Positions 40,569 through 54,086 of a stretch of 64,000 nt of DNA are shown here, piece after piece. Source of the stretch: Beijerinckiaceae bacterium. GTDB taxonomy: Bacteria; Pseudomonadota; Alphaproteobacteria; Rhizobiales; Beijerinckiaceae. Made by a program: the position numbers and the translations under genes. Position 1 is the first letter of the stretch. Each line of letters opens with the position of its first letter. The notes beneath the pieces were generated by a model. It had not been told where the DNA came from and did no database searches. It was given only the letters and a program-made list of their open reading frames with translations. Location: NCBI GenBank assembly GCA_027531565.1, contig JAPZSB010000005.1:186001-250000 (forward strand). The letters run 5' to 3'.

Positions 40569-40592
40569 AGCGCTGAACCTTCCTGAAAAACT

Positions 40593-40605
40593 GTATGCAG
40601 CATAC
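40593..40605. promoter_or_regulatory. GntR-type operator, copy 1 (perfect palindrome)
   Basis: GTATGC-A-GCATAC is a perfect 6-1-6 palindrome, 25 bases before the DapA-like gene and 110 bases before the divergent amidohydrolase start. It is the consensus for the four copies in the window and the probable target of the FCD-GntR regulator at 47367-48065. Confidence 0.75.
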
Positions 40606-40715
40606 TTGCGACCCGGGAACCATTAGCTATAGTGGTCCCGCCGTCAATCGGGGAGGCACCGATTTCACACCAGCTCGGGGCAGGATCAGGCGACAGGAAC
40701 GCGGCGGGACGCGCC

Positions 40716-41606
40716 GTGATCGACGCGCATCACCATGTCTGGGACCCGGGCCGGAACTACTATCCCTGGCTTTCTGACGAGCCGCCGATCCGCTTCCGCT
40801 ATGGCGACTATTCCGCGATCCGCCGGCCCTACCTGCCGGAAGACTATCGCCGGGATGCCCGGCCGTACCGCCTGCTGGCCAGCGTCTATGTCGAGGCGGA
40901 ATGGGACCCGCGCGATCCTGTCGGCGAAATGGACTACATCGCCGCCCTGCGCGCGGAAACCGGTTTGCCCAGCGTGGCGGTGGCGCAGGCCTGGCTCGAC
41001 AGGGATGACTGCGCGGCAGTGCTGGAAAGCCATGCCGCGCGCGGCTTCGTCCGGTCGGTCCGGCACAAGCCGCGGGCCAATGCCTCGCCGGCGGATGGTG
41101 CTGCAGGCGGCATGACGGACCCGCGCTGGCGCGAGGGGTTCGCCCGGCTGGCACCGCTGGGGCTGCGTTTCGATCTGCAGACGCCCTGGTGGCATCTCGG
41201 CGAGGCGGCCCGTCTGGCTGCGGATTTCCCGGAAACCACCATCATCCTGAACCATACCGGCCTGCCGGCGGATCGCTCGCCCGAAGGGCTGGCCGGGTGG
41301 AACGCGGCGATGCAGCGCCTCGCGGCCTGTCCGAATGTCATGGTCAAGATTTCCGGGATCGGCATTCCGGGCCAGCGCTGGACGGCGGAAGCCAACCGGG
41401 AGGTCGTGCTGCGGACGATTGACGCGTTCGGTTCCGGGCGCTGCATGTTCGCCTCGAACTTCCCGGTCGACTCGCTCTGCGCCGGCTTTTCCGAGATCTT
41501 CGGCGGGTTCGAGGCCATCGTGGCCGGCTTCCCGCAGAAGGAACAAGAGGCGTTGTTCGTCGAAAACGCCCGACGCATCTATGCGACAGGAGAGGGACAT
41601 GCCTGA
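40716..41606 (+). CDS. Amidohydrolase family 2 (lactonase or decarboxylase-like)
   Basis: A 296-residue TIM-barrel hydrolase: VIDAHHHVWDPGRNYYPWL at the N-terminus provides the HxH metal site, H in TIILNHTGLP and the FASNFPVDS end of the barrel follow. ASNFPVD instead of SDWPV is seen in the lactonase-like branch of the family. A GTG at 40716 is the likely start (GGGA upstream, directly before the HxH strand); an upstream GTG at 40632 would add 28 residues without family resemblance. The stop overlaps the dehydrogenase start by eight bases. It heads the operon running to 47360. Confidence 0.82.
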   Translation: MIDAHHHVWDPGRNYYPWLSDEPPIRFRYGDYSAIRRPYLPEDYRRDARPYRLLASVYVEAEWDPRDPVGEMDYIAALRAETGLPSVAVAQAWLDRDDCAAVLESHAARGFVRSVRHKPRANASPADGAAGGMTDPRWREGFARLAPLGLRFDLQTPWWHLGEAARLAADFPETTIILNHTGLPADRSPEGLAGWNAAMQRLAACPNVMVKISGIGIPGQRWTAEANREVVLRTIDAFGSGRCMFASNFPVDSLCAGFSEIFGGFEAIVAGFPQKEQEALFVENARRIYATGEGHA

Positions 41607-42492
41607 AACAGAAATGGCAAAGCCGCGGCTCGGCTATCTTGGCGTGGGCCTGATGGGCCTGCCGATGGTCCGCCATCTGCTGCCGAAAGGCTTTGCCATC
41701 ACGGCCTATGACATCGCACCCGCCCGGTGCGAGGCTGCCGGCGAGGCCGGAGCCTGCATCGCCGCCACGCCTGCCGGCGTCGTCGAAGGCGCTGATCTGA
41801 TCGTGCTGAACCTGCCGACCCTGGATGCGGTCGAACAGGTGATGTTCGGCAGCGGCGGCGTCGCTGCGGCGATGAAGCCGGGCCAGATCCTCGTCGATTT
41901 CTCGACCATCCCGGTCGAGGCCTGCCGCCGCCTCGGCGCCCGCCTGCTGTCCGAGCGCGGCTGCGGCTGGGTCGATACGCCTGTCTCGGGCGGCCCGCCG
42001 GCTTCCGGCACGGGCACGCTGACCGTGATGGCCGGCGGCCGTGATCAGGATCTCGCCCGGATCGCCCCGCTGATGGCGGATGTCGCCGGGCGCTACACGA
42101 TCATGGGCGGCCCCGGTGCCGGCCTCGTCGCCAAGATGATCAACCAGATGATCGTCGGCTGCACCCATGCCGTGCTGGCCGAGGCGCTGATGGTGGCCGA
42201 GGCCGCGGGCATCGATGCGAAACGCATTCCGGAATGCCTGGCCGGCGGCCATGCCGACAGCAACCTGCTCCAGCGCAATTATCCGCGCATGGCCAACCGG
42301 GACTTCGCGCCGCAGGGCTATGCCCGGCAGATGCTGAAGGACCTCGAGATGGTCAATGTCTTCACCGCCGGGCTGAAGACGGCCACCCCGATGACGGCGG
42401 ATGCGCTCAATCTGTACCGGATGGCCGTGCATTTCGGCCATGCGGAACTCGATACGACCGCCTTGGTCAAGGTTTACGATCGGGAGGGCTGA
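41599..42492 (+). CDS. NAD(P)-dependent beta-hydroxyacid dehydrogenase (3-hydroxyisobutyrate dehydrogenase family)
   Basis: A 297-residue protein with Rossmann motif LGYLGVGLMGLPMVRHL, substrate signature WVDTPVSGGPPASGTGTLTV and catalytic lysine region GLVAKMINQMIVG. Members oxidise or reduce beta-hydroxyacids such as tartronate semialdehyde or 3-hydroxyisobutyrate. AGGAGAGGG precedes the ATG. Position inside the operon suggests it handles a hydroxyacid intermediate of the same pathway. Confidence 0.9.
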   Translation: MPETEMAKPRLGYLGVGLMGLPMVRHLLPKGFAITAYDIAPARCEAAGEAGACIAATPAGVVEGADLIVLNLPTLDAVEQVMFGSGGVAAAMKPGQILVDFSTIPVEACRRLGARLLSERGCGWVDTPVSGGPPASGTGTLTVMAGGRDQDLARIAPLMADVAGRYTIMGGPGAGLVAKMINQMIVGCTHAVLAEALMVAEAAGIDAKRIPECLAGGHADSNLLQRNYPRMANRDFAPQGYARQMLKDLEMVNVFTAGLKTATPMTADALNLYRMAVHFGHAELDTTALVKVYDREG

Positions 42493-42493
42493 T

Positions 42494-42521
42494 GCCCTTC
42501 GACAACCAGCGCCCGAAGGGC
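42494..42521 (+). other. Hairpin between dehydrogenase and dctP genes
   Basis: Eight-base arms GCCCTTCG (42494-42501) and CGAAGGGC (42514-42521) with a twelve-base loop lie just after the dehydrogenase stop and before the dctP ribosome-binding site. No T-run. Confidence 0.5.
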
Positions 42522-42541
42522 CGGAAAAGGGAGGAAGAACG

Positions 42542-43534
42542 ATGCTGAACTGGAAATGGCTGCTCGCGCCGGGGCTGGCGATCCTGCCGCTGATGACCGC
42601 ACCGGCCGATGCGCAGATCAAGCTTCGCTACGCGCATGTCGGCGTCGCGAATGCGCCGCAGACGCTCTATGCCGACGAGGTCGCCAAGCTCGTGAAGGAG
42701 CGCACGCAAGGTCGCGTCGAGATTCAGGTTTTCGCCAATTCGCAGCTCGGCGGCGTGGCGGAGATGGTCGACGGTGTGAAGTCCGGCGCGATTGCGATCG
42801 GCCATCATGACTTCGCCTCGCTCGGCCGCATCCTGCCGACGACGGCGGTCTTCAACACGCCCTTTGTCTACCGCGATGCCGAGCATTCGCTCCGCGCGAC
42901 GGATTCCCGCACATCGCCTGCTTTGCAGGCGATCAACAAGGAGCTCGTCGAAAAGGGCGGAATGCGGATTGTCGGTTCCTTCTTCCAGGGGACGCGGCAC
43001 CTGACCTCCAAGGAAAAAGTGCTCTCGCCCGCCGACATGAAGGGCAAGAAGTATCGCGGCGTGCCGGTGAAGCTCTGGTCCTCGATGCTGACCGGCATGG
43101 GCGCCATCGCCACGCCGGTGGAAGTCTCCGAACTCGCCACCGCCTTGGCGACCGGCCTCGTCGTCGGGCAGGAAAACCCGCTGCCGAATATCTTCACGCT
43201 GAAGCTGTTCGAAGTGCAGAAATTCGTGATGCTCACCGGCCACATGCAATCTGTCCTCTCGGTTTTCGTGAACGAGCGGGTCTGGCAGGGGATCCCCGCC
43301 GCGGACCGCAAGATCATCGAAGACACGATGGCCGAGGTCGGCCAGAAGACGCTGGCCTGGGACAAGGAAAGCTTCGACCGCTACCGCAAGGAACTCGAGG
43401 GCAAGGGCATGACCTTCATCGAGGAGAAGGACGGGCTTGATCTCGCCGCGTTCCGCAAGGCCGTGCTGGATCAGGTCGCAAAGGATTTCCCGGACTGGAA
43501 CAGCTACATCGCCCAGATCCAGGCCGTGAAGTGA
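42542..43534 (+). CDS. dctP: TRAP transporter solute-binding protein, DctP family
   Basis: A 330-residue periplasmic protein (signal peptide 1-24, ending APADAQ). DctP features include KLRYAHVGVANAPQTLYADE, FANSQLGGVAEMVDGVKSG and the conserved arginine region KGKKYRGVPVKLWSSML. The start has GGGAGG nine bases upstream. It delivers a carboxylate to the DctQM permease encoded next; the substrate is likely that of the regulon. Confidence 0.93.
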   Translation: MLNWKWLLAPGLAILPLMTAPADAQIKLRYAHVGVANAPQTLYADEVAKLVKERTQGRVEIQVFANSQLGGVAEMVDGVKSGAIAIGHHDFASLGRILPTTAVFNTPFVYRDAEHSLRATDSRTSPALQAINKELVEKGGMRIVGSFFQGTRHLTSKEKVLSPADMKGKKYRGVPVKLWSSMLTGMGAIATPVEVSELATALATGLVVGQENPLPNIFTLKLFEVQKFVMLTGHMQSVLSVFVNERVWQGIPAADRKIIEDTMAEVGQKTLAWDKESFDRYRKELEGKGMTFIEEKDGLDLAAFRKAVLDQVAKDFPDWNSYIAQIQAVK

Positions 43535-43543
43535 CGTGTTGCC

Positions 43544-43567
43544 GCGGCGGGCTCCAGGGCCCGCCGC
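43544..43567 (+). other. Hairpin between dctP and dctQ
   Basis: Perfect nine-base arms GCGGCGGGC (43544-43552) and GCCCGCCGC (43559-43567) with loop TCCAGG begin nine bases after the dctP stop. Same placement as hairpins after three other binding-protein genes. Confidence 0.65.
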
Positions 43568-43589
43568 TCCCACCCAGCCGGAAACCGTC

Positions 43590-44072
43590 ATGCGACTGCT
43601 CGCCCTCGCCCTCCGGGCCGTGTCCTGCCTGCTGCTCGCAGGCCTGATCCTGGCGCCCTTTACCCAGATCATCATGCGCGGGGTTTTCGACGTGCCGCTG
43701 GCCGGCGCCGAGGAAATCGCCCGCTACATGCTGATCTGCCTGACATTTCTGGCCGCAGCCCTCGTGTCGCTCGAAGGCGGGCAGATCCGGATGGAGGAAT
43801 TCCAGGGCATGCTGCCGGAACGGCCGCGCTGGCTCCTGCAACTGATCATCGAGGTCGCAGGCATTGTCTTCTTCTCGGTACTTTCGGGGGCCGCCTTCCT
43901 GACGATCAGCCGGAATTTCAGGAGCACCACGGCGACGCTGGAAATGCCTTTCCTGTTCTTCATGGGCCCCCTGGCGGTCGGCGCAGCCCTCCTCGCGATC
44001 GCCTGCGCCAGCCTGTTCTGGACCACCTTCTCGCGCGGCAAGCCCGACGAGAAGCAGACCACCCTGACCTGA
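43590..44072 (+). CDS. dctQ: TRAP transporter small permease, DctQ family
   Basis: A 160-residue protein with four hydrophobic segments and DctQ features: TQIIMRGVFDVPLAGAEEIARY, and SLEGGQIRMEEF in the second span region. The start at 43590 (MRLLALALRAVS) directly precedes the first span; an in-frame codon at 43536 would run through the hairpin and is rejected. Confidence 0.9.
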   Translation: MRLLALALRAVSCLLLAGLILAPFTQIIMRGVFDVPLAGAEEIARYMLICLTFLAAALVSLEGGQIRMEEFQGMLPERPRWLLQLIIEVAGIVFFSVLSGAAFLTISRNFRSTTATLEMPFLFFMGPLAVGAALLAIACASLFWTTFSRGKPDEKQTTLT

Positions 44073-44082
44073 GGTCCCGTTC

Positions 44083-45366
44083 ATGGCCGGCTTTCTTGTT
44101 GTTTTCGCCTTTGTCGGGCTTTTTGCCCTTGGCTTCCCCGTGGTGCTGGCGATCGGCATCCCGTGCCTGATCTATCTCGCCGCGAACGGCCTTCCGCTCG
44201 ACCTGCTTGCCCAGCGCACGCTCTATGCGATGGATTCCTTCCCGCTGGTCGCCGTGCCGGTCTTCCTGTTCGTCGGAAGCCTGATGAATTCCGCCGGCAT
44301 CTCGAAATACATCTACAAATTCGCCGATACACTGGTTGGACGGCTGCCGGGCGGCCTTGCGCAGGTGAACATCTTCGGCTCCCTCGTTTTTGCCGGCATG
44401 TCCGGTTCGGCGCTGGCCGATATCGGTGGGATCGGCCGCATCGAGATCGATGCGATGAAGGAAAAGGGCTATAACCGGGCCTTCGCGGCGGCGGTGACCT
44501 CGTCCTCGGCCATTGTCGGCCCCATCTTCCCGCCCAGTATCCCGCTGATCATCTACGGCACCGTCACGGGCGTGTCCGTGCTGCAGTTGCTGCTCGGCGG
44601 CATCCTGCCGGGGCTGCTCTGCGTCGCGGGCCTCATGCTGATGACGGCCTGGCTTGCCCGCAGGCGGAACTATCCGCGGGCGGATCGCTGGCCCACGTTG
44701 GTCGAAATCCTGCGGGATTTCTGGCCGGCTCTCCCGGCAATCCTCGCGCCGGTCCTTCTGATCGGCGGGATGCTTGCCGGCTTCTTCACGCCGACGGAAA
44801 TCGCCTCCGTCACCGTGATCTACACGATTGCCATCAGCGCGCTCTTCTACCGCGAGTTGACCTGGCGTGGCCTCTATGCCGCCGCGCTGGAGACGATCCG
44901 CTCCTCGGCGGCGATCCTGCTGATCGTGGCCGTGGCCGCGCTGTTCGGCTGGATCCTCTCGGTCGAGCGCGTGCCGCAGATCCTCGCGGGATGGATGCTG
45001 TCGATCTCGTCCGATCCGCTGGTCCTGCTGTTGCTCGTCAATATCCTGCTGCTGATCGTCGGCATGTTCCTCGATTCCACCACGGCGATCCTCGTCATCG
45101 CCCCGATCATCGCCAAGCCGCTGATGCTGGCCGGCGTCGACCCCGTCCATCTCGGCATGGTGGTGGTGTTCAACCTCATGGTCGGGCTGCTGACGCCGCC
45201 CATGGGGCTGGCGCTCTATCTCGTCGCTGATATCGCGCAGGTCCGGATGCGCGATGTCCTGCGGGAGATGATGCCGTTCTACATTCCGCTGGGCTTGACG
45301 CTGCTGGTGATCACCTATGTGCCATGGGTGACCACCTTCATCCCGCGTCTTGCTTTCGGAAACTGA
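44083..45366 (+). CDS. dctM: TRAP transporter large permease, DctM family
   Basis: A 427-residue membrane protein with about twelve spans. Signature loops are NIFGSLVFAGMSGSALADIG, SSSAIVGPIFPPSIPLIIYG and NLMVGLLTPPMGLALYLV. It forms the ion-coupled channel with DctQ. It is ten bases after dctQ and three bases before the CoA-transferase gene, in one operon. Confidence 0.95.
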   Translation: MAGFLVVFAFVGLFALGFPVVLAIGIPCLIYLAANGLPLDLLAQRTLYAMDSFPLVAVPVFLFVGSLMNSAGISKYIYKFADTLVGRLPGGLAQVNIFGSLVFAGMSGSALADIGGIGRIEIDAMKEKGYNRAFAAAVTSSSAIVGPIFPPSIPLIIYGTVTGVSVLQLLLGGILPGLLCVAGLMLMTAWLARRRNYPRADRWPTLVEILRDFWPALPAILAPVLLIGGMLAGFFTPTEIASVTVIYTIAISALFYRELTWRGLYAAALETIRSSAAILLIVAVAALFGWILSVERVPQILAGWMLSISSDPLVLLLLVNILLLIVGMFLDSTTAILVIAPIIAKPLMLAGVDPVHLGMVVVFNLMVGLLTPPMGLALYLVADIAQVRMRDVLREMMPFYIPLGLTLLVITYVPWVTTFIPRLAFGN

Positions 45367-45369
45367 ACC

Positions 45370-46578
45370 ATGCCCCGTCCCGCGCCCTCCACCGCGCTCC
45401 GTCCTCTCCGGGTCATCGACCTGTCGCGCGTGAGGGCGGGCCCGACCTGCGTCCGCATCTTTGCGGATTTCGGAGCGGACGTGATCAAGGTCGAGCCGCC
45501 CCCGGGCCTCGATCCCAACGAGAACATGAGCGGCCCCCGGCATGGCTATGACATGCAGAACCTGCACCGGAACAAGCGTTCGCTGACGCTCAACCTCAAG
45601 AAGCCGTCGGGCATGGCGGTCCTGCGGCGCCTGCTGGAGACGGCGGACCTGCTGATCGAGAATTTCCGCCCGGATGTGAAGGGCAAGCTCGGCCTCGATT
45701 TCGAGACGCTGCATGCGCTCAACCCCCGCCTGATCCTGGTCTCCCTGTCCGGCTTCGGCCAGTCCGGGCCCTATCGCAGCCGGTCAGGCTTTGACCAGAT
45801 CGCGCAGGGCATGGGCGGATTGATGTCGGTCACCGGGTTGCCGGGGCAGGGGCCCGTCCGGGCGGGCATCGCCGTGGCGGATTCCGCGGCCGGCCTCTAT
45901 GCCGCCATCGGCGCCCTCGTGGCCCTGCAGGAGCGGGCGGTATCCGGCCTCGGCCAATGGGTCCAGACCTCGCTGCTCGAGGCGCAGATCGGGATGATGG
46001 ATTTCCAGGCCGCCCGCTATCTCGTCGAGGGCAAGGTCCCGCCGCAATCCGGCAATGACCATCCGTATTCGACGCCGATGGGCGTTTACCGGACGCGCAA
46101 CGGCCACATCAACATTGCCGTCGGCGCCGAGGGGCATTGGCGTGCCTTCTGCGCCGCGATCGGCGAACCGGAATGGGCGGATGACCCGGATTACAGCTCG
46201 TTGGAAAAGCGCTTTGCCCGCCGGCCGGAACTGCGGGAACGGCTCGAGGCCATCCTCGCGAGGGAGGATTCCGCCTATTGGCTCGACCGGCTCGAGGAAG
46301 CCGCGGTTCCTGCCGGGCCGATCTATGCGGTGGACGAGATGTTCGAGGACCCGCAGGTCAGACATCTCGGCATCGCCCAGAGCGTGAACCATCCCGCGTT
46401 GGGCGAGATCCGGCTCGTCGGTGAACCGGTCACGCTGTCGCGCACCCCCGCCAGCCTCGCGACGCCGACGCCGGATGCCGGTGATCACAATGCGGAAATC
46501 CTCGCCGAACTCGGCTATTCCGGGGATGAAATCGATTCGCTGCTGGCCGAACACGGCCCGGGGGAGCCCAGACCATGA
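45370..46578 (+). CDS. Family III (CaiB/BaiF) CoA transferase
   Basis: A 402-residue enzyme: LRVIDLSRVRAGPTCVRIFADFG at the start, LHRNKRSLTLNLKKPSG, and a VADSAAGLYAAIGALVALQ segment near the expected catalytic Asp. The C-terminal half has PYSTPMGVYRTRNGHINIAVG. It moves CoA between carboxylates, activating an acid imported by the neighbouring TRAP system. Its stop overlaps the crotonase start (ATGA). Confidence 0.92.
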   Translation: MPRPAPSTALRPLRVIDLSRVRAGPTCVRIFADFGADVIKVEPPPGLDPNENMSGPRHGYDMQNLHRNKRSLTLNLKKPSGMAVLRRLLETADLLIENFRPDVKGKLGLDFETLHALNPRLILVSLSGFGQSGPYRSRSGFDQIAQGMGGLMSVTGLPGQGPVRAGIAVADSAAGLYAAIGALVALQERAVSGLGQWVQTSLLEAQIGMMDFQAARYLVEGKVPPQSGNDHPYSTPMGVYRTRNGHINIAVGAEGHWRAFCAAIGEPEWADDPDYSSLEKRFARRPELRERLEAILAREDSAYWLDRLEEAAVPAGPIYAVDEMFEDPQVRHLGIAQSVNHPALGEIRLVGEPVTLSRTPASLATPTPDAGDHNAEILAELGYSGDEIDSLLAEHGPGEPRP

Positions 46579-47360
46579 CCGAGGCCGCATCCGAGGTTCT
46601 TTTCTCCTGCGAAAGCGGGATCGGCATCATCACGTTGAACCGGCCGCAGGCGCGCAACGCGCTGACCTTCGCGATGTACGAGGAGATCGCCCGGATCGCG
46701 GCCGACCCGCAGGCCATGGGCGCCACGCGTGCGCTGATCCTGACCGGCGCAGGTGACAAGGCCTTCGCCGCCGGTACGGATATCGCCCAGTTCCGCGATT
46801 TCCACACCCCCGAGGATGCGCTCGCCTACGAGGACCGGATCGAGCGCGTGCTCGACACGCTGGAATCCTGCCCGGTCCCGACCATCGCCGCGATTGCCGG
46901 CGCGGTGACGGGGGGCGGCGCGGCGATTGCCGCCTGCTGCGACCTGCGGATCGCCACCGAATCCGCTCGGTTCGGCTTTCCGATTGCCCGGACGCTCGGC
47001 AATTGTCTCTCCATGCGCAATTATGCCCGGCTCAACGCCTTGCTCGGCCCGGCCCGCGTGAAGGACCTGATCTTCACCGCACGGCTCATCGAGGCGGAGG
47101 AGGGGCGCGCCATCGGCCTGTTCAGCGAGATCCTGCCTGACCATGCCGCCCTGACCGCGCGGATGATGAGCCTCGCTGCGCTGATCGCCGGGCACGCGCC
47201 GCTGACCTTGCGGGCGACGAAGGAATCCCTCCGCCGGATCGGGCAGGGCGCGGATCTCGATGACAGCGAGTGGGTGCTGAACTGCTATCTCAGCGGGGAT
47301 TTCAAGGAAGGCATGGAAGCCTTCCTCGCCAAACGCCCGCCGGACTGGAAGGGCCGCTGA
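46575..47360 (+). CDS. Enoyl-CoA hydratase/isomerase (crotonase) family protein without the catalytic Glu pair
   Basis: A 261-residue crotonase-fold protein with the two oxyanion segments (AFAAGTDIAQF and GAVTGGGAAIAA). The two glutamates of classical enoyl-CoA hydratase are absent: A117 in GGGAA and I137 in GFPIARTLG, where E and PE are usual. It is therefore probably not a simple hydratase; isomerase, hydrolase, lyase or decarboxylase chemistry is possible. It is translationally coupled to the CoA transferase, so it should act on that enzyme's CoA ester. Confidence 0.85.
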   Translation: MTEAASEVLFSCESGIGIITLNRPQARNALTFAMYEEIARIAADPQAMGATRALILTGAGDKAFAAGTDIAQFRDFHTPEDALAYEDRIERVLDTLESCPVPTIAAIAGAVTGGGAAIAACCDLRIATESARFGFPIARTLGNCLSMRNYARLNALLGPARVKDLIFTARLIEAEEGRAIGLFSEILPDHAALTARMMSLAALIAGHAPLTLRATKESLRRIGQGADLDDSEWVLNCYLSGDFKEGMEAFLAKRPPDWKGR

Positions 47361-47366
47361 ACACGC

Positions 47367-48065
47367 TCAGATCGCGTCGCGGACCCGGTCGAGCGTCTTG
47401 TCGAGATGCCGGCCGAGGACTTCCGACAGTTTCTCGCCATCCCGCGCCAGCAGCGCGAGGTTCATCTCCTCGTGCTCGGCCACGGCGCCAGCCCAGCGCT
47501 CGGGCAATTCATTCCCGATGAAGCGCACGCGCTTGATCCGCGCCTGGAGCTGCTCGTGAACCTGGGTCAAGGCGCTATTGCCGCTGGCCCGCACGATGGC
47601 GGCATGGATTTCCTGGTTCAGCTTGAAATAGGCCAGCCGGTTGCGATCGGCATAGAGCCTGAGCATCTGCTGGTGAAGGTCCGCGATCTCGGCGATCTCG
47701 GCGTCGCTCGCATGGGCGCAGGTCAGCCGGGCCGCCAGCTGCTCCAGCGTTTTCAGCACATCGAGAATGTCGCGGATATCCTTCTCCGAAAAGCGCCGGA
47801 CGATGGCGCCCTTTGCCGGCAGGATCTCGACGAGCCCCTCGCTGGCCAAGGTCTTGATGGCCTCCCGCAGAGGCGTGCGCGAAACGCCGAGCGAGGCCCC
47901 GACGGGACCCTCGTTGATGCGCGTGCCCGGAGCCAGCTTGCCTTCGATGATCATGTCGCGCAGCTGGTTGAGCACCGCGTCATGCAGCGTGACCCGCGTG
48001 ATCCGTTGCACGCCATCCATGGCCTCATCGGAGACCGCCCAGTTCTTCTTCCCGGAATCGGCCAC
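47367..48065 (-). CDS. GntR-family regulator, FadR/FCD type
   Basis: A 232-residue repressor-type regulator. The N-terminal winged helix reads LHDAVLNQLRDMIIEGKLAP and GASLGVSRTPLREAIKTLAS. The C-terminal all-helical FCD domain has metal or ligand-site residues in LNQEIHAAIVRASGN and VAEHEEM. The start is a GTG at 48065 with GAGGGG five bases upstream, giving the standard length. A copy of the 13-bp operator lies 164 bases upstream, implying autoregulation. The gene converges on the 40.7-47.4 kb operon with six bases between stops. Confidence 0.9.
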   Translation of the reverse strand: MADSGKKNWAVSDEAMDGVQRITRVTLHDAVLNQLRDMIIEGKLAPGTRINEGPVGASLGVSRTPLREAIKTLASEGLVEILPAKGAIVRRFSEKDIRDILDVLKTLEQLAARLTCAHASDAEIAEIADLHQQMLRLYADRNRLAYFKLNQEIHAAIVRASGNSALTQVHEQLQARIKRVRFIGNELPERWAGAVAEHEEMNLALLARDGEKLSEVLGRHLDKTLDRVRDAI

Positions 48066-48228
48066 GTTTCCCCTCGCGTCGCGCTTCCCTGTCGCGTTTC
48101 CTTGTTGCCAGAACCGGAATTCGATTTCTAGAACCCCGGCAACCCCTCGATCGCACAAATCCGGGATCGTGCCCGTCCGCCCCCCGGAATTTTCAACGGC
48201 GCATGCGCGACGAGCAATCAGGGTTGTG

Positions 48229-48241
48229 GTATGCAGAATAC
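48229..48241. promoter_or_regulatory. GntR-type operator, copy 2, upstream of the regulator gene
   Basis: GTATGCAGAATAC differs from the perfect palindrome by one base. It lies between the GntR gene and the stop of the SAF-domain oxidoreductase gene, fitting autoregulation. Confidence 0.65.
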
Positions 48242-48261
48242 AGTTTGCTCCCTGATCGTTG

Positions 48262-49653
48262 TCAAGCGCCGAGGAAGGCGGCATCCTGCTGGAGGCGAAG
48301 GTCGAGAAGGGTCGATTTCGGCTCGATCGCAAGGTCCGAGGGCCGGATCGCGGCTCCGGCAGGCAGGTCCCGTGCCAGCACGCGGTTGGCGACCAGATAA
48401 TAGGGCGTCGTGGCTTCGGCCGAGAGCGGCAGGGCAGGGCGCATCTCGGCGGTCACGCCGTCGATCGTGTGGTGATGCCCCTTGGCTTCGAGGATCGTCC
48501 CGGCTGCGAGGGGACCGGTGGTGACGGCGACAAGATCCTGCTTCGGCGCATAATCGGGCCCGTAGGGCGTTTCGCCGAGGGCCGCGAGATCGAACAGGCT
48601 CGTCGCAGCCTCCAGCCCCAGCAGGTGGCGCGGCAGATAGATCATCGCCGTTTCGCCATCCCGACTGACCGCATGGCCCTTCCCGGCCAGAACCTGCCAC
48701 GCGGTCCAGTCCTGGCAGCGCAAAGTGACGAAAACGCCGCCGGCAAAACTGGCTTCGTCCGCCAGCCGGACATGATGGAAGACATCCAGCCGCCTGCCGC
48801 CGGAAAGAAGGCCGGCCCTGTCCCGTGGCCGAAGCAGCTCGGCAATCTCCGGAATGCGGGCGACCGGGCAATGGAAGCCCGGCCTGTCAGGAGCGAGGCC
48901 CGTCGCATTCGCCACCAGCGTCATCTCGCACAGGTCCGGCACGGCCCGCAGCGGGAAATGCCGACCGAGCAGTGAAGCTCGGTCCGCCGCGCGGAAAGCC
49001 GCCGGCTGTGCGGCGTCGTTCCACGCCGCGCCGATCCCCTCGATCCGCGCCGGCACGCCGTTGCAGGTCACGCGATCGGTGCCGGGATCGACCACGAAGT
49101 CATATTCGCTGGATTTGCCGGCACAGAGAATGTCGAAGCCAAGCGTTTCCGCCCAGGTCACAAGGTCGATCAGCAGGCTCGGCTGGTCCCCGTCCACCGG
49201 CGCGATCCGGACACCGTTCTCCCGCGCCTTGCGGGCAAGAATGGGCCCGGCCACCGAATCCGCCTCCTTGCTGACCAGCAAGACATGCCGGTTGGCCTCG
49301 ATCGCCGCGAGGCTGTGCCGCGCCGCGGCCTCCGGATGCCCGGTCGCCTCGACGAGAATGTCAAAGGGCAGATCGAGCACGATGTCGAGGCTGCCGGCGG
49401 CGACGAGCCTGCCGGCCCGGAGGGCGACGTCGGCGTCGCGCGCCGTCAGGCACAGCGCCACGTCCTGCGGATCATGCCCGGCGGCGGTAAAGGCCCGGCC
49501 GGCTGCTTCCGCGGTCAGGTCCACCGCAATCCTCGGCGACAGGCGCGGGATATGGCGTGCCTGGGCGATCAGGCTTTGCCCGAACTGCCCGCTCCCGATC
49601 ACGCATAGACGGACGGGCGCGGCGAGGGCGGCATAACGATGGTGATAGTTCAT
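48262..49653 (-). CDS. NAD(P)-dependent oxidoreductase with C-terminal SAF domain (homoserine-dehydrogenase-like, COG4091 type)
   Basis: A 463-residue protein with a Rossmann start (VRLCVIGSGQFGQSLIAQAR), a central part with ILVEATGHPEAAARHSL and APVDGDQPSLLIDLVTWAE, and a C-terminal SAF-like segment (YYLVANRVLARDLPAGAAIR). This layout matches predicted homoserine-dehydrogenase-like proteins found in sugar-acid gene clusters. The start at 49653 is preferred because the alternative ATG at 49695 lies inside operator copy 3. It is divergent from tctCBA. Reaction unknown. Confidence 0.78.
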   Translation of the reverse strand: MNYHHRYAALAAPVRLCVIGSGQFGQSLIAQARHIPRLSPRIAVDLTAEAAGRAFTAAGHDPQDVALCLTARDADVALRAGRLVAAGSLDIVLDLPFDILVEATGHPEAAARHSLAAIEANRHVLLVSKEADSVAGPILARKARENGVRIAPVDGDQPSLLIDLVTWAETLGFDILCAGKSSEYDFVVDPGTDRVTCNGVPARIEGIGAAWNDAAQPAAFRAADRASLLGRHFPLRAVPDLCEMTLVANATGLAPDRPGFHCPVARIPEIAELLRPRDRAGLLSGGRRLDVFHHVRLADEASFAGGVFVTLRCQDWTAWQVLAGKGHAVSRDGETAMIYLPRHLLGLEAATSLFDLAALGETPYGPDYAPKQDLVAVTTGPLAAGTILEAKGHHHTIDGVTAEMRPALPLSAEATTPYYLVANRVLARDLPAGAAIRPSDLAIEPKSTLLDLRLQQDAAFLGA

Positions 49654-49691
49654 GACGGCGCATCCCGATCGGTGAGTGCAGGATGAATGTT

Positions 49692-49704
49692 GCATGCTGC
49701 ATAC
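49692..49704. promoter_or_regulatory. GntR-type operator, copy 3, between SAF oxidoreductase and tctCBA
   Basis: On the minus strand GTATGCAGCATGC, one mismatch to the perfect palindrome. It lies 39 bases before the SAF-oxidoreductase start and 71 bases before tctC, so it can control both. Confidence 0.7.
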
Positions 49705-49774
49705 AGATATGACAAGTTGTCACGAGGCAGGCCATCCAAGGGCCTGTGAGAAACCATGAGCAAGGGAGGAAAGA

Positions 49775-50767
49775 ATGGCTCGCAAATTCGGAATGGCCCT
49801 GGGTTTCCTGGCCGCCGGCATGGCCGGTGCCGCCGCGCAGGGCTGGCAGCCCACCAAGCCGATCGAATTCGTCGTGACGTCCAGCCCGGGCGGCGGCACC
49901 GACAATTTCACCCGGATGATCCAGTCGATCATTCTGAAATACAAGCTGATCGACCAGCCCATCGTGGTCAGCAACAAGGGCGGCGGTTCCGGCGCGGAAG
50001 GCTATCTCGTCTCCAAGACATCCGCGGGCGACCCCTACAAGGTCATTTTCGGCACCAATAACGCCTATCTGCTGCCCTACGTCGCCAAACTCGGCTATAA
50101 ATTCTCCGACCTCACGCCCGTGGCGGCGCTGGCGCTTGATGAGTTCCTGCTCTGGGTCAAGGCGGATGCGCCCTACAAGACCGCGAAAGACTATGTCGAG
50201 GCGGTCAAGGCCAAGCCCGAGACGTACAAGATGGGCGGCAGCCAGTCGAAGGATACCGACCAGACGCTGACCAGCATCCTCTCCACGGCGACCGGCGCGA
50301 AGTTCATCTATGTCCCGTTCCAGGGGGGCGGCGCTGTCGGCACGCAGCTCGCCGGTGGCCATATCAACTCGCACACCAACAATCCGAACGAGAGCATCGG
50401 CCAGTGGAAAGCCGGGCAGGTCCGTCCGCTCTGCGTGTTTTCGCCGACGCGGCTCCCGGCCGGTCCGAAGGTCACCGAAACGCAAGGCTGGGCGGATATC
50501 CCGACCTGCAAGGAATCCGGGATCCCGGTTGAACGCTTCCAGATGCCGCGGACCGTCTGGCTGCCGGCGGGCACCCCCGCCGGTGCCGTCCAGTTCTACG
50601 AGGGCATCCTGAAGAAGGTGTCGGAAACGCCGGAATGGCAGGAATACATCACCCGCACGGTGCAGACCGGGCAGTTCCTGTCGGGTGACAGCCTGAAGGC
50701 GTTCGTGGCCAATGACGACAAGCTCTCGCGCGAGGTGTTCGAGCGCGAAGGCTGGATCGTGAAGTAA
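49775..50767 (+). CDS. tctC: Tripartite tricarboxylate transporter substrate-binding protein
   Basis: A 330-residue periplasmic protein of the Bug/TctC family (signal 1-21, cleavage near AAAQ). It has the WQPTKPIEFVV start and VTSSPGGGTDNFTRM loop, VVSNKGGGSGAEGYL, and VPFQGGGAVGTQLAGGHIN. GGGAGG lies seven bases before the ATG. TctC proteins bind carboxylates such as citrate or other organic acids. Confidence 0.92.
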   Translation: MARKFGMALGFLAAGMAGAAAQGWQPTKPIEFVVTSSPGGGTDNFTRMIQSIILKYKLIDQPIVVSNKGGGSGAEGYLVSKTSAGDPYKVIFGTNNAYLLPYVAKLGYKFSDLTPVAALALDEFLLWVKADAPYKTAKDYVEAVKAKPETYKMGGSQSKDTDQTLTSILSTATGAKFIYVPFQGGGAVGTQLAGGHINSHTNNPNESIGQWKAGQVRPLCVFSPTRLPAGPKVTETQGWADIPTCKESGIPVERFQMPRTVWLPAGTPAGAVQFYEGILKKVSETPEWQEYITRTVQTGQFLSGDSLKAFVANDDKLSREVFEREGWIVK

Positions 50768-50780
50768 AGGCTGGCAGGCC

Positions 50781-51269
50781 ATGATCGCGCGCTGGCAGGC
50801 GGAACTCGGGATGGCGGCCTTTCTGGCCGTCATCGGCGTCATCACGATCATCGGCGCCCGGGAATACGGCGTCGGCTGGTCGCCCTCCGGGCCGGAGCCC
50901 GGCGCCTTCCCGTTCTACATGGGGATCATCGTCCTGCTGGCGAGCCTCGCCAATGCCTTGCGCGCGCTTGTCGCCGGCCTCCGTCCGGCCCTCTGGTCGG
51001 AACAGGCGTTCCTGAAGCCGGAGCAGATGCGGCTGGTTCTCGGCTTCACGCTGCCCATTCTCGGGCTGGTCGTGGCGAGCCTGATGCTTGGCCTCTATGT
51101 CGGGATGGCACTCTACCTGTTTGGCACATTGGTGCTGCAGAACCGTTATCCGGTGCTGAAGGCCAGCCTGATCGCGCTGGCGACACCTGTCCTCGCCTAT
51201 TTCCTGATCGAGCGGGTGTTCAAGGTCGCGATGCTGAAGGGCCCGCTCGAGGCCTGGCTGGGATTGTGA
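50781..51269 (+). CDS. tctB: Tripartite tricarboxylate transporter small membrane subunit
   Basis: A 162-residue protein with four hydrophobic segments, GPEPGAFPFYMGIIVLLASL between the first two. Typical TctB size and layout. It starts 13 bases after tctC and ends seven bases before tctA. Confidence 0.88.
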   Translation: MIARWQAELGMAAFLAVIGVITIIGAREYGVGWSPSGPEPGAFPFYMGIIVLLASLANALRALVAGLRPALWSEQAFLKPEQMRLVLGFTLPILGLVVASLMLGLYVGMALYLFGTLVLQNRYPVLKASLIALATPVLAYFLIERVFKVAMLKGPLEAWLGL

Positions 51270-51276
51270 GGCGGCG

Positions 51277-52776
51277 ATGGATGGGTTTTCCGGCCTCCTG
51301 CACGGGTTCGGCGTCGCGCTGACCTGGTACCATGTGATGCTGATGGTCATCGGCGTGCTGCTCGGCATCCTCGTCGGCGTATTGCCGGGGCTGGGCGCGC
51401 CGAACGGCGTGTCGCTGCTCCTGCCGCTCACCTTCACCATGGATCCGGTCTCGGCCATCATCCTGCTCACCAGCATGTACTGGGGCGCGCTGTTCGGCGG
51501 CTCGACCACGTCCATCCTTTTCAACATTCCAGGTGAGCCTTCTTCGGTCGCGACAACCTTCGACGGCTATCCGATGGCCCAGAATGGCCGGGCCACCGAA
51601 GCGCTCAGCTTCGCCTTCCTGTCGGCCGGCTTCGGCGCGATTGTCGGCGTGCTGTTGATCACCGCGCTCTCGGGCTGGGTGACGCAATTCGCACTCAAAT
51701 TCTCGTCGCCGGAATTCTTCGGCGTCTATTTCCTCGCCTTTGCCAGCTTTGTCGGCCTGTCGGGGGCGCCGCCGCTCAAGGCAGCGGTTTCGATCGCGCT
51801 CGGCTTCTCTCTGGCGGCAGTCGGGATGGATTCCGTTTCCGGCAGCCTGCGCCTGACCTTCGGCTATGATGTGCTGCTCGCCGGGATCAGCTTCCTCGTG
51901 GCGGTGATCGGGCTCTTCGGTATCGGCGAGCTGATCCTGACCATCGAGGACGGCCTCAAGCTTGACGGTATCCGCGCGAAGATCACCCCGCGTGACGTGC
52001 TGCGGACAGCGGCACAGATGCCGAAGCACTGGGCCACCTTGCTGCGTTCCTCCATCGTCGGCTGCTGGATGGGCATCACGCCGGGCGGCCCGACGGCGGC
52101 GTCCTTCATGTCCTATGGTCTCGCCAAGCGCTTCTCGGCCTATCGCGCCAATTTCGGCAAGGGTGAGCCGGATGGCGTGATCGCGCCGGAAACGGCCGAT
52201 CACTCCGCCGGAACCTCGGCCATGCTGCCGATGATGGCGCTCGGCCTGCCGGGTTCGGCCACGGCGGCTGTCATGCTCGGCGGGCTGATGATCTGGGGCC
52301 TCAATCCCGGACCGATGCTCTTCGTCGAGCGGCCGGACTTTGTCTGGGGTCTCATCGCGTCGATGTATCTGGGCAATGTCGTCGCCGTGGTGCTCGTGCT
52401 CGCCACCGTGCCGCTCTTCGCCTCGATCCTGCGCATCCCCTTCGCGATCATCGGGCCGCTCATCGTCGTTGTCTGCTTCATCGGTGCCTACACGATCGCC
52501 GGCCGGCCCTTCGATCTCTGGTTGGCCCTGGCCTTCGGCATTCTGGGCTATGTCTTCAAGAAGCTCGACTATCCGATCGCGCCGCTTATCCTCGCCATGG
52601 TCATCGGAGACAAGGCGGAAGATGCGTTCCGCCAGTCCATGATCATGTCGAAGGGCTCGCTCTCGATCTTCTGGTCCAACCCGCTGGTGACCAGCCTGAT
52701 GCTGCTCGGCCTCGTGCTGCTGTTCTGGCCTCTGCTCGGCGCCCTGCGCCAGCGACTGCGCGCGGCCCGCTCCTGA
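51277..52776 (+). CDS. tctA: Tripartite tricarboxylate transporter large membrane subunit
   Basis: A 499-residue protein with about eleven membrane spans. Signature regions: GVLPGLGAPNGVSLLLPLTF, YWGALFGGSTTSILFNIPGE, and GITPGGPTAASFMSYGLAKR with the following ETADHSAGTSAMLPMMALG. It is the transport channel of the TTT system and is followed by a strong terminator. Confidence 0.95.
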   Translation: MDGFSGLLHGFGVALTWYHVMLMVIGVLLGILVGVLPGLGAPNGVSLLLPLTFTMDPVSAIILLTSMYWGALFGGSTTSILFNIPGEPSSVATTFDGYPMAQNGRATEALSFAFLSAGFGAIVGVLLITALSGWVTQFALKFSSPEFFGVYFLAFASFVGLSGAPPLKAAVSIALGFSLAAVGMDSVSGSLRLTFGYDVLLAGISFLVAVIGLFGIGELILTIEDGLKLDGIRAKITPRDVLRTAAQMPKHWATLLRSSIVGCWMGITPGGPTAASFMSYGLAKRFSAYRANFGKGEPDGVIAPETADHSAGTSAMLPMMALGLPGSATAAVMLGGLMIWGLNPGPMLFVERPDFVWGLIASMYLGNVVAVVLVLATVPLFASILRIPFAIIGPLIVVVCFIGAYTIAGRPFDLWLALAFGILGYVFKKLDYPIAPLILAMVIGDKAEDAFRQSMIMSKGSLSIFWSNPLVTSLMLLGLVLLFWPLLGALRQRLRAARS

Positions 52777-52806
52777 CACCGTCGCCTGTCGCCCCGCATC
52801 ATGCAG

Positions 52807-52834
52807 AAACGCCGCCTCAGGGGCGGCGTTTTGT
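52807..52834. terminator. Strong rho-independent terminator after tctA, usable in both directions
   Basis: Ten-base arms AAACGCCGCC (52807-52816) and GGCGGCGTTT (52822-52831) with loop TCAGG; T residues follow on the plus strand (52829-52832), and the A-run of the left arm serves the minus strand. It separates convergent tctA and the PdxA-like gene. Confidence 0.85.
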
Positions 52835-52869
52835 CGTTCGGAAAAGCCGGAGGCGAGGCGCGAACGGCC

Positions 52870-53880
52870 TCAGGCCGCCTTGCGCCGGGCGGCAGCCATC
52901 CGCGTCGCGATCGTCATCGCGTTCCGCATGGCCCCGGGATTGGCAATGCCCTTGCCGGCAATGTCATAGGCCGAACCATGGGCCGCCGTGGCAATCGGGA
53001 ACGGGTAGCCGCCGAGAACGGTCACGCCCTGGTCGAAGCCGATCAGCTTCATCGCGATCTGGCCCTGGTCATGATACATCGTCAGCACCGCATCGAACTC
53101 GCCCTTCCGGGCCCGGACGAACACCGTGTCGGAGGGGAAGGGGCCCGCACAGGCAATGCCCTCGCGCTGGCCAGCCGCCACGACGGGCTCCAGGACGTCG
53201 ATCTCCTCGCGGCCGAAATTGCCGCCATCCCCGGCATGCGGGTTGAGCCCGGCCACAGCGATCCGTGGCCGCGACCATCCGGCAGCCCGCATCGCCTGGT
53301 CGGTCAGGCGCAGCGCGCGGGTCACATTCTCCGCCGTGATCAGCGACGCAACGCCGGAGATCGGCACATGCGAGGTGACGCGGGCATTCCAGAGATCCGG
53401 CAGGATGTTGAATTCGCTGGCGGTTCCCTTGAAATCGAGGAACTCGTTCATGAAGACGACCTCGTCCTCGTAGGCGGGATAGGACAGGCGCATCGAGGCC
53501 TTGTTGAAAGGCGAGAAGGTCACGCCATCCACCAGCCCGGCCTTGGCAAGGGCAAGACCCTTGCGGAAATTCGCCATGGCGGCATCGCCGGCCGGCTTCT
53601 GCAACTCGCCGGGACGGATCGTCGCCGGGTCGAGATGCGCCATGTCGATCAGTACGGGGCCGTTGCCGGCGGGGATCGGGTCGGTTTCGCGGATGGTCGG
53701 CAGCGACACGGTTACTCCCGCGGCCCGCGCACCGGCCGCGAGAACCCGGGCATCGCCGATCGCGATGATCCGCGCGGCGGCATTGATGTCGGCATCGGCA
53801 AGGATGCGGGCGGAAAGTTCGGGGCCGATACCCGCCGGGCAGCCGATCACATGGGCAAGGACAGGCCGGCTGGCATCCAT
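52870..53880 (-). CDS. PdxA-family 4-phospho-hydroxyacid dehydrogenase
   Basis: A 336-residue PdxA-fold enzyme: IGCPAGIGPELSARI at the start, the three metal-binding histidines in TSHVPISGV, GLNPHAGDGGNFG and TMYHDQGQIAMK, and YPFPIATAAHGSAYDIAGKG at the end. True PdxA works in vitamin B6 synthesis. Copies in catabolic clusters (PdxA2 type) oxidise 4-phospho-sugar acids such as threonate or erythronate 4-phosphate. The location in the operator-linked region favours the catabolic role, though no DUF1537-type kinase is in the window. The start at 53880 has AAGGAG eight bases upstream. Confidence 0.85.
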   Translation of the reverse strand: MDASRPVLAHVIGCPAGIGPELSARILADADINAAARIIAIGDARVLAAGARAAGVTVSLPTIRETDPIPAGNGPVLIDMAHLDPATIRPGELQKPAGDAAMANFRKGLALAKAGLVDGVTFSPFNKASMRLSYPAYEDEVVFMNEFLDFKGTASEFNILPDLWNARVTSHVPISGVASLITAENVTRALRLTDQAMRAAGWSRPRIAVAGLNPHAGDGGNFGREEIDVLEPVVAAGQREGIACAGPFPSDTVFVRARKGEFDAVLTMYHDQGQIAMKLIGFDQGVTVLGGYPFPIATAAHGSAYDIAGKGIANPGAMRNAMTIATRMAAARRKAA

Positions 53881-53961
53881 CGTCGAAACTCCTTCCGAAG
53901 GGCATTGGCGCAGGGGCGCCACTGTTCAGCCTAACGTAGAAACCTCGCCTTCATTGGTCAA

Positions 53962-53974
53962 GTATGCTGTATAC
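53962..53974. promoter_or_regulatory. GntR-type operator, copy 4, between PdxA-like and FAD oxidoreductase genes
   Basis: On the minus strand GTATACAGCATAC, one mismatch to the perfect palindrome. With copy 1 it shares CTGTAT-CAGCATACTTG, 17 of 18 positions. It sits 82 bases before the PdxA-like start and 113 bases before the FAD-oxidoreductase start. Confidence 0.7.
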
Positions 53975-54086
53975 AGCGTGCGCGATCTTTTATGCGAATC
54001 CGGCCTTTGTCGGCATCGCTTGGCCCGAGGCCGACAATCTGTATCCTCCGCCCGGTTGGATGGCGCGATTCCCGGGGGAGATGACC

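What the first reader, a model, noticed from the sequence alone, without database searches (positions are those of the whole stretch)
40593..53974. A four-site GntR regulon defined by a 13-bp palindrome
GTATGCAGCATAC occurs once as a perfect palindrome (40593-40605) and three times with one mismatch (48229-48241, 49692-49704, 53962-53974). Every copy is in a promoter region, and three of the four are between divergent genes. Together they cover the DapA-like gene, the amidohydrolase-to-crotonase operon with its TRAP transporter, the FCD-GntR gene itself, the SAF oxidoreductase, tctCBA, the PdxA-like gene and the FAD oxidoreductase operon. I noticed no other copy in the window. The simplest reading is one repressor controlling at least six transcription units for one substrate.
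Basis: partly seen in the sequence, partly recalled or inferred. Interest (0 to 1): 0.85.

Follow-up and report, generated by a model that had tools for sequence, protein, structure and literature searches.

The report
Conserved sugar-acid gene control network
Four copies of a short DNA signal in this bacterium, probably a Rhabdaerophilum, very likely mark where one regulator protein of the GntR family switches a set of sugar-acid uptake and breakdown genes, and the same signal is found beside relatives of that regulator in other alphaproteobacteria.

Summary
GTATGCAGCATAC is at 40593, and with one mismatch at 48229, 49692 and 53962. Within one mismatch there is no other copy in the window and one more in the 3.67-Mb genome. 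All four sites recur in the four close relatives examined; site 1 survives in another genus while its flanks differ. The motif accompanies many, not all, relatives of this FCD-GntR in Hyphomicrobiales and, with two mismatches, on Sinorhizobium meliloti pSymB and in Roseomonas. It is missing from five loci with the SAF/DRL gene but an unrelated GntR. A matrix from 17 sites of other genera ranks the four window sites first.

Corrections: the 13-mer is probably part of a 20-bp element with half-sites 7 bp apart and a CTGYATRCAG core, close to FadR-subfamily operators (PMC4494728). Two weaker candidate sites lie elsewhere.

Site 1 abuts a -35 box and site 2 overlaps a likely -10, which fits repression. 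The DapA-like protein is a strong L-2-keto-3-deoxyarabonate dehydratase homologue, so a sugar-acid inducer is likely. Binding, sign and inducer are untested.

The parts
40586..40605 (-).
   Evidence: (score 36.2); AAACTGTATGCAGCATACTTGCGA identical in G166, G192, G153 and, in another genus, G025
40606..40633 (+). Promoter-like pair TTGCGA-16-TATAGT for the amidohydrolase operon, touching site 1
   Evidence: same pair and spacing read by eye in all five aligned sequences
48229..48248 (+). Operator site 2 (13-mer 48229-48241), between the SAF/DRL gene and gntR, both on the minus strand
   Evidence: (score 13.5)
48237..48265 (-). Likely gntR promoter TTGACA-17-TGTATT, with the -10 inside site 2
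   Evidence: read by eye, same pair and spacing in all five aligned sequences; the scan found no promoter here under its own rules
49685..49704 (.). Operator site 3 (13-mer 49692-49704) in the frame the matrix prefers; other frame 49692-49711 (+). Between SAF/DRL (-) and tctC (+)
   Evidence: scores 19.0 and 17.7 in this frame, 13.3 in the other
53962..53981 (+). Operator site 4 (13-mer 53962-53974) with an exact CTGTATACAG core, between pdxA-like (-) and FAD oxidoreductase (+)
   Evidence: (score 33.2)
47367..48065 (-). FCD-domain GntR regulator (P0001, 232 aa; GTG start at 48065 uncertain)
   Evidence: Pfam FCD 6.8e-24 and GntR 3.5e-16
39624..40568 (-). DapA-like protein, probable L-2-keto-3-deoxyarabonate dehydratase
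   Evidence: Pfam DHDPS; PDB 3fkk and 7c0c, E about 2e-130 over residues 14-313
40632..41606 (+). Amidohydrolase_2 protein, perhaps a lactonase (start uncertain, probably further downstream)
   Evidence: Pfam; L-fucono-1,5-lactonase model 80 bits, cut-off 400
41614..42492 (+). 3-hydroxyisobutyrate / tartronate-semialdehyde reductase family dehydrogenase
   Evidence: below equivalog cut-offs
42518..45366 (+). TRAP transporter dctP-dctQ-dctM (dctP start uncertain)
45370..47360 (+). Class III CoA-transferase and enoyl-CoA hydratase (crotonase) genes
48262..49653 (-). SAF/DRL oxidoreductase (463 aa)
   Evidence: Pfam DRL_cat, SAF, NAD_binding_3; PDB 3upl/3upy E 5e-30
49775..52776 (+). Tripartite tricarboxylate transporter tctC-tctB-tctA
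52870..53880 (-). PdxA-family dehydrogenase
   Evidence: best solved match D-threonate 4-phosphate dehydrogenase 6e85, 4.5e-57; below the cut-offs of all models listed
54087..55532 (+). FAD_binding_4 oxidoreductase with twin-arginine-like N-terminus (start 54081 or 54087)
   Evidence: nearest: sugar-1,4-lactone oxidases and dehydrogenases, weak

Best explanation
The four sites are operators of the FCD-GntR protein encoded at 47367-48065. Without ligand it most likely represses seven transcription units: dapA-like, the amidohydrolase-TRAP-crotonase operon, its own gene, SAF/DRL, tctCBA, pdxA-like and the FAD oxidoreductase. A sugar acid or its 2-keto-3-deoxy product entering through the TRAP or TCT transporter would bind the FCD domain and release it. 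Shown by computation: the sites, their conservation, their association with this GntR clade, and their position at promoters. Inferred: binding, repression, autoregulation, a shared pathway, the inducer class.
For: 4 of the genome's 5 places within 1 mismatch lie in 13.4 kb. All four sites are present in the four other cluster-bearing genus genomes: G166, G192, G153 and G582. Footprint: 24 bp identical around site 1 across two genera while flanks differ. Of 23 larger loci with a GntR of about 53-76% identity counted, 14 carry a site within 1 mismatch (15 sites); the 4 others of the main group of 18 have a 2-mismatch site (L049, L163, L165) or a matrix hit of 34 (L055). Over the 18, 142 control palindromes average 0.63 sites, but one control reaches 8. 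No site within 1 mismatch in 5 loci with the SAF/DRL gene and a GntR under 50%, nor in 15 loci with a GntR under 52%. A matrix from 17 sites of other genera puts its 11 best window placements at the four sites (scores 36 to 11; next 8.7); the reversed window tops at 8.5. Companion genes are reshuffled between genomes while the site stays upstream. The same site type lies between gntR and pdxA on S. meliloti pSymB (2 mismatches), Chelatococcus (1) and Roseomonas (2) plasmids. The core is close to the FadR-subfamily consensus with 2-nt GT-AC spacing (PMC4494728, passages).
Against: No binding or expression data. Not every related GntR has the site: the 5 loci set apart (L154-L157, L168; GntR about 65-71%) have none within 1 mismatch; with the matrix L154, L156, L157 top at 8.4, 3.1, 3.2, L155 at 14.2 and L168 at 12.7. 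L068 (GntR 70%), not in that count, has none either. I split those groups, so 14 of 18 is a favoured figure; 14 of 23, or of 24 with L068, is the fair one. Within 1.5 kb, 7 of 30 order-wide loci have a site within 1 mismatch, and 5 loci at 53-70% identity have none within 2. Window sites 2 and 3 score only 13.5 and 19.0, and a simulated genome of this size gives 11 hits at 14 or more. One DRL-only locus (L056) has a 13.0 matrix hit. The left GT of the FadR consensus is GC in most sites. Methylobacterium nodulans L174 has pdxA and an amidohydrolase but no site and no GntR in an incomplete gene table. SAF/DRL was not found in the fetched stretches of several motif-bearing clusters.
Confidence: 0.82

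Rival explanations
1. The sites are operators of a different regulator encoded elsewhere, and the FCD-GntR is merely a neighbour and target.
For: No binding data. Several close GntR relatives lack the site. Two further candidate sites lie far from gntR, one beside a TetR gene.
Against: This GntR clade is next to the site in loci of different families; I did not list other regulators systematically. Five loci with the SAF/DRL gene and another GntR lack the site within 1 mismatch. The core is close to the FadR-subfamily consensus.
Confidence: 0.1
2. The GntR binds the sites but activates, or does both depending on the promoter.
For: The element abuts the -35 box at site 1, and by eye a TTGACC at the pdxA side of site 4, a position from which a bound protein could contact RNA polymerase. 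Sites in divergent promoters can serve opposite signs.
Against: At site 2 the element covers the likely -10. Many described FCD regulators of catabolic operons are repressors (recalled).
Confidence: 0.2
3. The regulon serves two or more substrates with a common inducer rather than one pathway (TRAP operon for one, TCT-PdxA set for another).
For: In the fetched stretches of other genomes the sets separate: amidohydrolase-HIBDH-TRAP without tct in G578 (contig ends there), G435 and G353; pdxA-tct without TRAP in G163, G052 and S. meliloti. Two transporter types for one solute is unusual.
Against: Sets recombine in other loci (tct with dapA in G581 and G052; TRAP with pdxA in G435 and G353), which fits alternative import routes into one pathway.
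Confidence: 0.35
4. Chance cluster of a short palindrome.
For: At 3 mismatches the window shows only a weak excess.
Confidence: 0.01

Closest known systems
FadR-subfamily (FCD) GntR regulators with 2-nt GT-AC spacing (GntR, HpxS, HypR, MdcY, PrpR, UxuR groups in Suvorova et al. 2015, PMC4494728)
   Same: GntR wHTH plus FCD domain; core close to TGT-AT-ACA; single sites in divergons; carboxylic or sugar-acid type targets (passages)
   Different: The core is usually CTGCATACAG, one base off; a further half-site at 7-bp spacing is common here (14 of 24 sites). That paper reports weaker extra boxes 7-12 nt from the centre in 13 FadR-subfamily groups; whether this group is among them was not checked (supplements and RegPrecise not available)
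TIGR03338 phnR_burk (phosphonate-associated GntR)
   Same: Best NCBIfam match of P0001, 106 bits
   Different: Far below its cut-off of 271.5 bits; no phosphonate gene among the cluster genes
L-2-keto-3-deoxyarabonate dehydratase (PDB 3fkk, 7c0c)
   Same: DapA-like protein aligns over residues 14-313 at E about 2e-130
   Different: No sugar-acid dehydratase or sugar dehydrogenase of the arabinose route was seen among the cluster genes
DRL, DXR-like reductoisomerase (PDB 3upl; the name and role are recalled)
   Same: DRL_cat, SAF and NAD-binding domains
   Different: E 5e-30 only; it lies with sugar-acid genes, so I infer that an isoprenoid role is unlikely

Membership tests
FadR/FCD subfamily of GntR regulators | N-terminal GntR wHTH and C-terminal FCD domain | tested here: met
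   Pfam GntR 59 bits (cut-off 27), FCD 85.1 bits (cut-off 24.3)
FadR/FCD subfamily of GntR regulators | FCD metal-ligand histidines | tested here: inconclusive
   Three histidines align with histidines of solved relatives, and an aligned Asp is Asn in P0001 (by eye); which residues bind metal is recalled
FadR/FCD subfamily of GntR regulators | TKGT-N2/3-ACMA operator | tested here: inconclusive
   Of 25 hand-collected sites, 4 have CTGTATACAG exactly, 17 have one mismatch, 4 have two; this is close to, not equal to, the consensus of PMC4494728
Autoregulated multi-operon regulon | Site upstream of the regulator gene, kept in relatives | tested here: met
   Site 2 precedes gntR in the window, G166 and G192; in G153 and G025 it precedes a TRAP pair that precedes gntR
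Autoregulated multi-operon regulon | Regulator binds the sites and a ligand releases it | not testable with these tools
   needs protein
L-2-keto-3-deoxyarabonate dehydratase | Close full-length homology to the characterised enzyme | tested here: met
L-2-keto-3-deoxyarabonate dehydratase | Activity on L-2-keto-3-deoxyarabonate | not testable with these tools
   needs protein
PdxA / PdxA2 (tetronate pathway) | Equivalog score | tested here: not met
   pdxA model 241.5 bits, cut-off 290; D-threonate 4-phosphate dehydrogenase 198, cut-off 583; filed only as PdxA-like
DRL reductoisomerase of isoprenoid synthesis | DRL catalytic domain | tested here: met
   PF21135 3.3e-24
DRL reductoisomerase of isoprenoid synthesis | Replaces DXR in the genome | not tested
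   dxr was not searched in the own genome

The most novel reading that the evidence does not exclude
A regulon of alphaproteobacteria not described in the papers I could search, from Hyphomicrobiales to Rhodospirillales and carried also on megaplasmids, in which one FCD-GntR reads a directional three-half-site operator. It would control a modular pathway for a not yet identified sugar acid or its lactone, joining PdxA-like, DRL-like and L-2-keto-3-deoxyarabonate dehydratase enzymes with interchangeable TRAP or TCT transporters.
Probability: 0.45. Interest if true: 0.55.

Novelty: new member of a known kind. Interest (0 to 1): 0.45.

Why it matters
It ties seven transcription units, two transporters and three enzymes with unassigned roles (PdxA-like, DRL-like, FAD sugar oxidase-like) to one regulator and so probably to one class of substrate. 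A similar arrangement sits on Sinorhizobium meliloti pSymB, a genetically tractable organism, so inducer and pathway can be sought there. The comparison also suggests how a near-palindromic half-site repeated every 7 bp can make a 13-bp pseudo-palindrome look like the whole operator when the better dyad lies 3.5 bp away.

Tried and rejected
Chance cluster: rejected. Motif tracks the SAF/DRL gene rather than the GntR: rejected, 0 of 5 DRL loci with an unrelated GntR have a site within 1 mismatch, though one of them has a 13.0 matrix hit.

Over 25 sites it is well paired only inside the 13-mer (22 to 25 of 25 at four pairs, 14 and 10 at two; at most 7 beyond). The even dyad at position 10.5 has 19 to 25 of 25 at six pairs out to positions 3 and 18, but 5, 11, 6 and 8 at four others; sums over the inner ten pairs 136 against 168 of 250. 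Cautions: the sites were collected through the 13-mer and oriented by eye for the third half-site, so the first two half-sites are alike partly by construction and the count leans to the even dyad; window site 3 was entered there in its lower-scoring frame. An orientation-free test finds a third half-site within 1 mismatch in 14 of 24 sites (2 of the 4 window sites) against 2.2% of random positions; some registers were chosen by hand there too. Left out of the site sets as near-duplicates: sites of G011, G337, G364 and the other genus genomes; G353 is in the set only.

Other 2-mismatch places in the own genome looked at with the matrix (C3:188135, C10:64601, C12:462718; scores 6.4, 14.4, 13.6): not convincing. 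C8:25397 and C9:136513 (17.6, 17.8) are kept as candidates only: 7 chance hits of 16 or more came up in one simulated genome, and the flanks of the C8 site are conserved as well.

Papers: the motif strings gave 0 papers. Pathway terms gave listings only, nothing on point by title and abstract. S. meliloti locus tags guessed from memory gave 3 papers, listing only and not opened, and 0. Only PMC4494728 was opened (outline and passages). RegPrecise was not available. Two S. meliloti records had no annotation.
Full report
Observation. Nothing else in the window lies within one mismatch, and control palindromes of the same half-site composition average 0.08 such matches, maximum 2. In the genome in which the window lies (13 contigs, 3.67 Mb) five places are within one mismatch; four are these.

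Gene context. Pfam gives DHDPS (39624-40568, -); Amidohydro_2, HIBDH-type dehydrogenase, DctP, DctQ, DctM, class III CoA-transferase and enoyl-CoA hydratase (40632-47360, +); FCD-GntR (47367-48065, -); SAF/DRL oxidoreductase (48262-49653, -); TctC, TctB, TctA (49775-52776, +); PdxA (52870-53880, -); and FAD_binding_4 (54087-55532, +). Sites 1, 3 and 4 sit between divergent genes, site 2 between SAF/DRL and gntR.

Organism. Named relatives of the GntR at 97-98% are two MAGs labelled Beijerinckiaceae, one labelled Hyphomicrobiales, and Rhabdaerophilum sp. SD176. The window is therefore probably Rhabdaerophilum; the genome itself is unnamed.

Conservation in the genus. Of 17 genus genomes searched, five (own, G582, G166, G153, G192) hold a GntR of 97-100%, four others one of 65-75%, and eight none at E 1e-60. 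In G166, G192 and G153 all four sites stand at the same promoters. In G582 the four sites are seen on two contigs. Alignments show the sites as islands: site 1 with its neighbours (AAACTGTATGCAGCATACTTGCGA) is identical in the other-genus G025, whose flanks differ, and the TTGCGA-16-TATAGT promoter next to it is kept (one search reports it in the window; the relatives by eye). At site 2 TTGACA-17-TGTATT (my reading; the scan reports no promoter) is kept in all five sequences and the operator covers its -10. In G153 and G025 a second TRAP pair lies between site 2 and gntR; in the window it is missing, so site 2 stands directly before gntR.

Conservation outside the genus. Of 397 genomes of the order, 127 have a GntR match at E 1e-40. 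I examined the 30 loci returned, own included. Within about 1.5 kb of the gene seven have a site within one mismatch and three more within two (a level that 12 to 20 of 142 control palindromes also reach in those three); twenty have none. All ten have 53% identity or more; none of the 15 loci below 52% has one; five at 53-70% lack it (L072, L074, L076, L077, L085). With about 10 kb on each side (shorter where a contig ended) I counted 23 loci with a GntR of about 53-76%, 16 of the main 18 from other genera: 14 of 23 have a site within one mismatch. I had set the 5 loci without any site apart before the count, so the tool's line reads 14 of 18 and 0 of 5. L068 (70%) was left out of that count and has none. 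Of the other misses, L049, L163 and L165 have a site with two mismatches, and L055 one that the matrix finds (CAAGCATTCTGTATGCAGAATTT, score 34). The genes behind the site differ from genome to genome (pdxA-tct, amidohydrolase-HIBDH-TRAP, SAF/DRL-gntR) yet come from one pool. GntR and PdxA-like genes divergent with the site between them are also on S. meliloti pSymB (2 mismatches) and on Chelatococcus (1) and Roseomonas (2) plasmids, and Chelatococcus has a second site before a TRAP gene. Methylobacterium nodulans has pdxA without a site; its listed genes near by include no GntR, in a table that is incomplete. In a tree of 40 GntR proteins all rows with a site within two mismatches fall in one group of 36 (support 86/89, not firm), which also holds rows without one.

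Operator. Aligning 24 hand-collected sites from 18 genomes or records, oriented by eye, gives CAA-GTATGC-T-GYATAC-A-GNATNY. The AT of the first two half-sites is in 24 of 24, partly because sites were found through the 13-mer; outside the 13-mer A14 and G15 are each 23 of 24, and in the third half-site A and T are 18 and 21 of 24. Half-sites follow each other every 7 bp. Since GYATRC is nearly its own reverse complement, two dyads are possible. The even one at CTGYA|TRCAG spans the conserved block better (168 against 136 of 250 paired cells, 25 sites) and is close to the FadR-subfamily core with two bases between GT and AC (PMC4494728, outline and passages), though the left GT is more often GC. 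That paper also reports weaker extra boxes 7-12 nt from the centre. A matrix from 17 sites of other genera finds the four window sites and nothing else above 8.7. In distant relatives (L086-L089, GntR about 50%) AT-richer triplets with similar spacing score 15 to 19; this is suggestive only.

More targets. A site at G000:C8:25397 lies between a TRAP operon and a divergent TetR gene. It is in 5 of 5 genomes with the 97-100% GntR, and upstream of dctP in none of the 9 other genus genomes that have an orthologue (14 of 17 have one); 3 of those 9 (G581, G026, G576) do have a 65-73% GntR. The five are close kin and the flanks are conserved too, so this is weak support. A site before an FAD/DAO oxidoreductase (C9:136513) is in 4 of 4 close orthologues (92-100%), absent in 3 of 3 at 71% and in one at 41%. 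Both score about 17.7, where one simulated genome gave 7 hits at 16 or more.

Function. The DapA-like protein is a strong homologue of L-2-keto-3-deoxyarabonate dehydratase. The amidohydrolase resembles a sugar lactonase weakly, the FAD protein sugar-lactone oxidases weakly, and the PdxA-like protein D-threonate 4-phosphate dehydrogenase, below cut-offs. The S. meliloti cluster has a dihydroxyacetone-kinase family gene behind it. I infer a sugar-acid (pentonate-like or tetronate-like) pathway; the exact substrate is open.

Verdict. A real, conserved regulon of a known kind, with a refined operator and an unknown substrate. Binding and sign of control remain to be shown.

Noticed in passing
L048:8322-10544, L060:1649-3872, L064:137-2359: A second TRAP pair (DctM and DctP) lies between site 2 and gntR in G153 and G025 and before gntR in a named MAG; it is absent from the window, G166 and G192, as if lost.
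   Followed up: partly
L062:6313-11271 (G000:C8): TRAP operon with Gfo/Idh/MocA oxidoreductase, divergent TetR gene, and a motif copy between them: candidate fifth site.
   Followed up: partly
L063:9513-12020 (G000:C9): Two consecutive FAD/DAO oxidoreductase genes preceded by GCATACAGCATAC: candidate sixth site.
   Followed up: partly
window 54081-54130: The FAD oxidoreductase may begin MTMPRMTRRAVMA, a twin-arginine-like signal, suggesting a periplasmic sugar oxidase (read by eye).
   Followed up: no
L172:14265-15983: Dihydroxyacetone-kinase family gene (Dak1 + Dak2) behind pdxA-tct on S. meliloti pSymB, next to phn C-P lyase genes.
   Followed up: no
L087:1374, L088:2235, L089:1374, L086:2157: AT-richer triplets such as GTATAATGCATAATGAATGA beside GntR relatives of about 50% identity, perhaps a drifted form of the same operator.
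   Followed up: no
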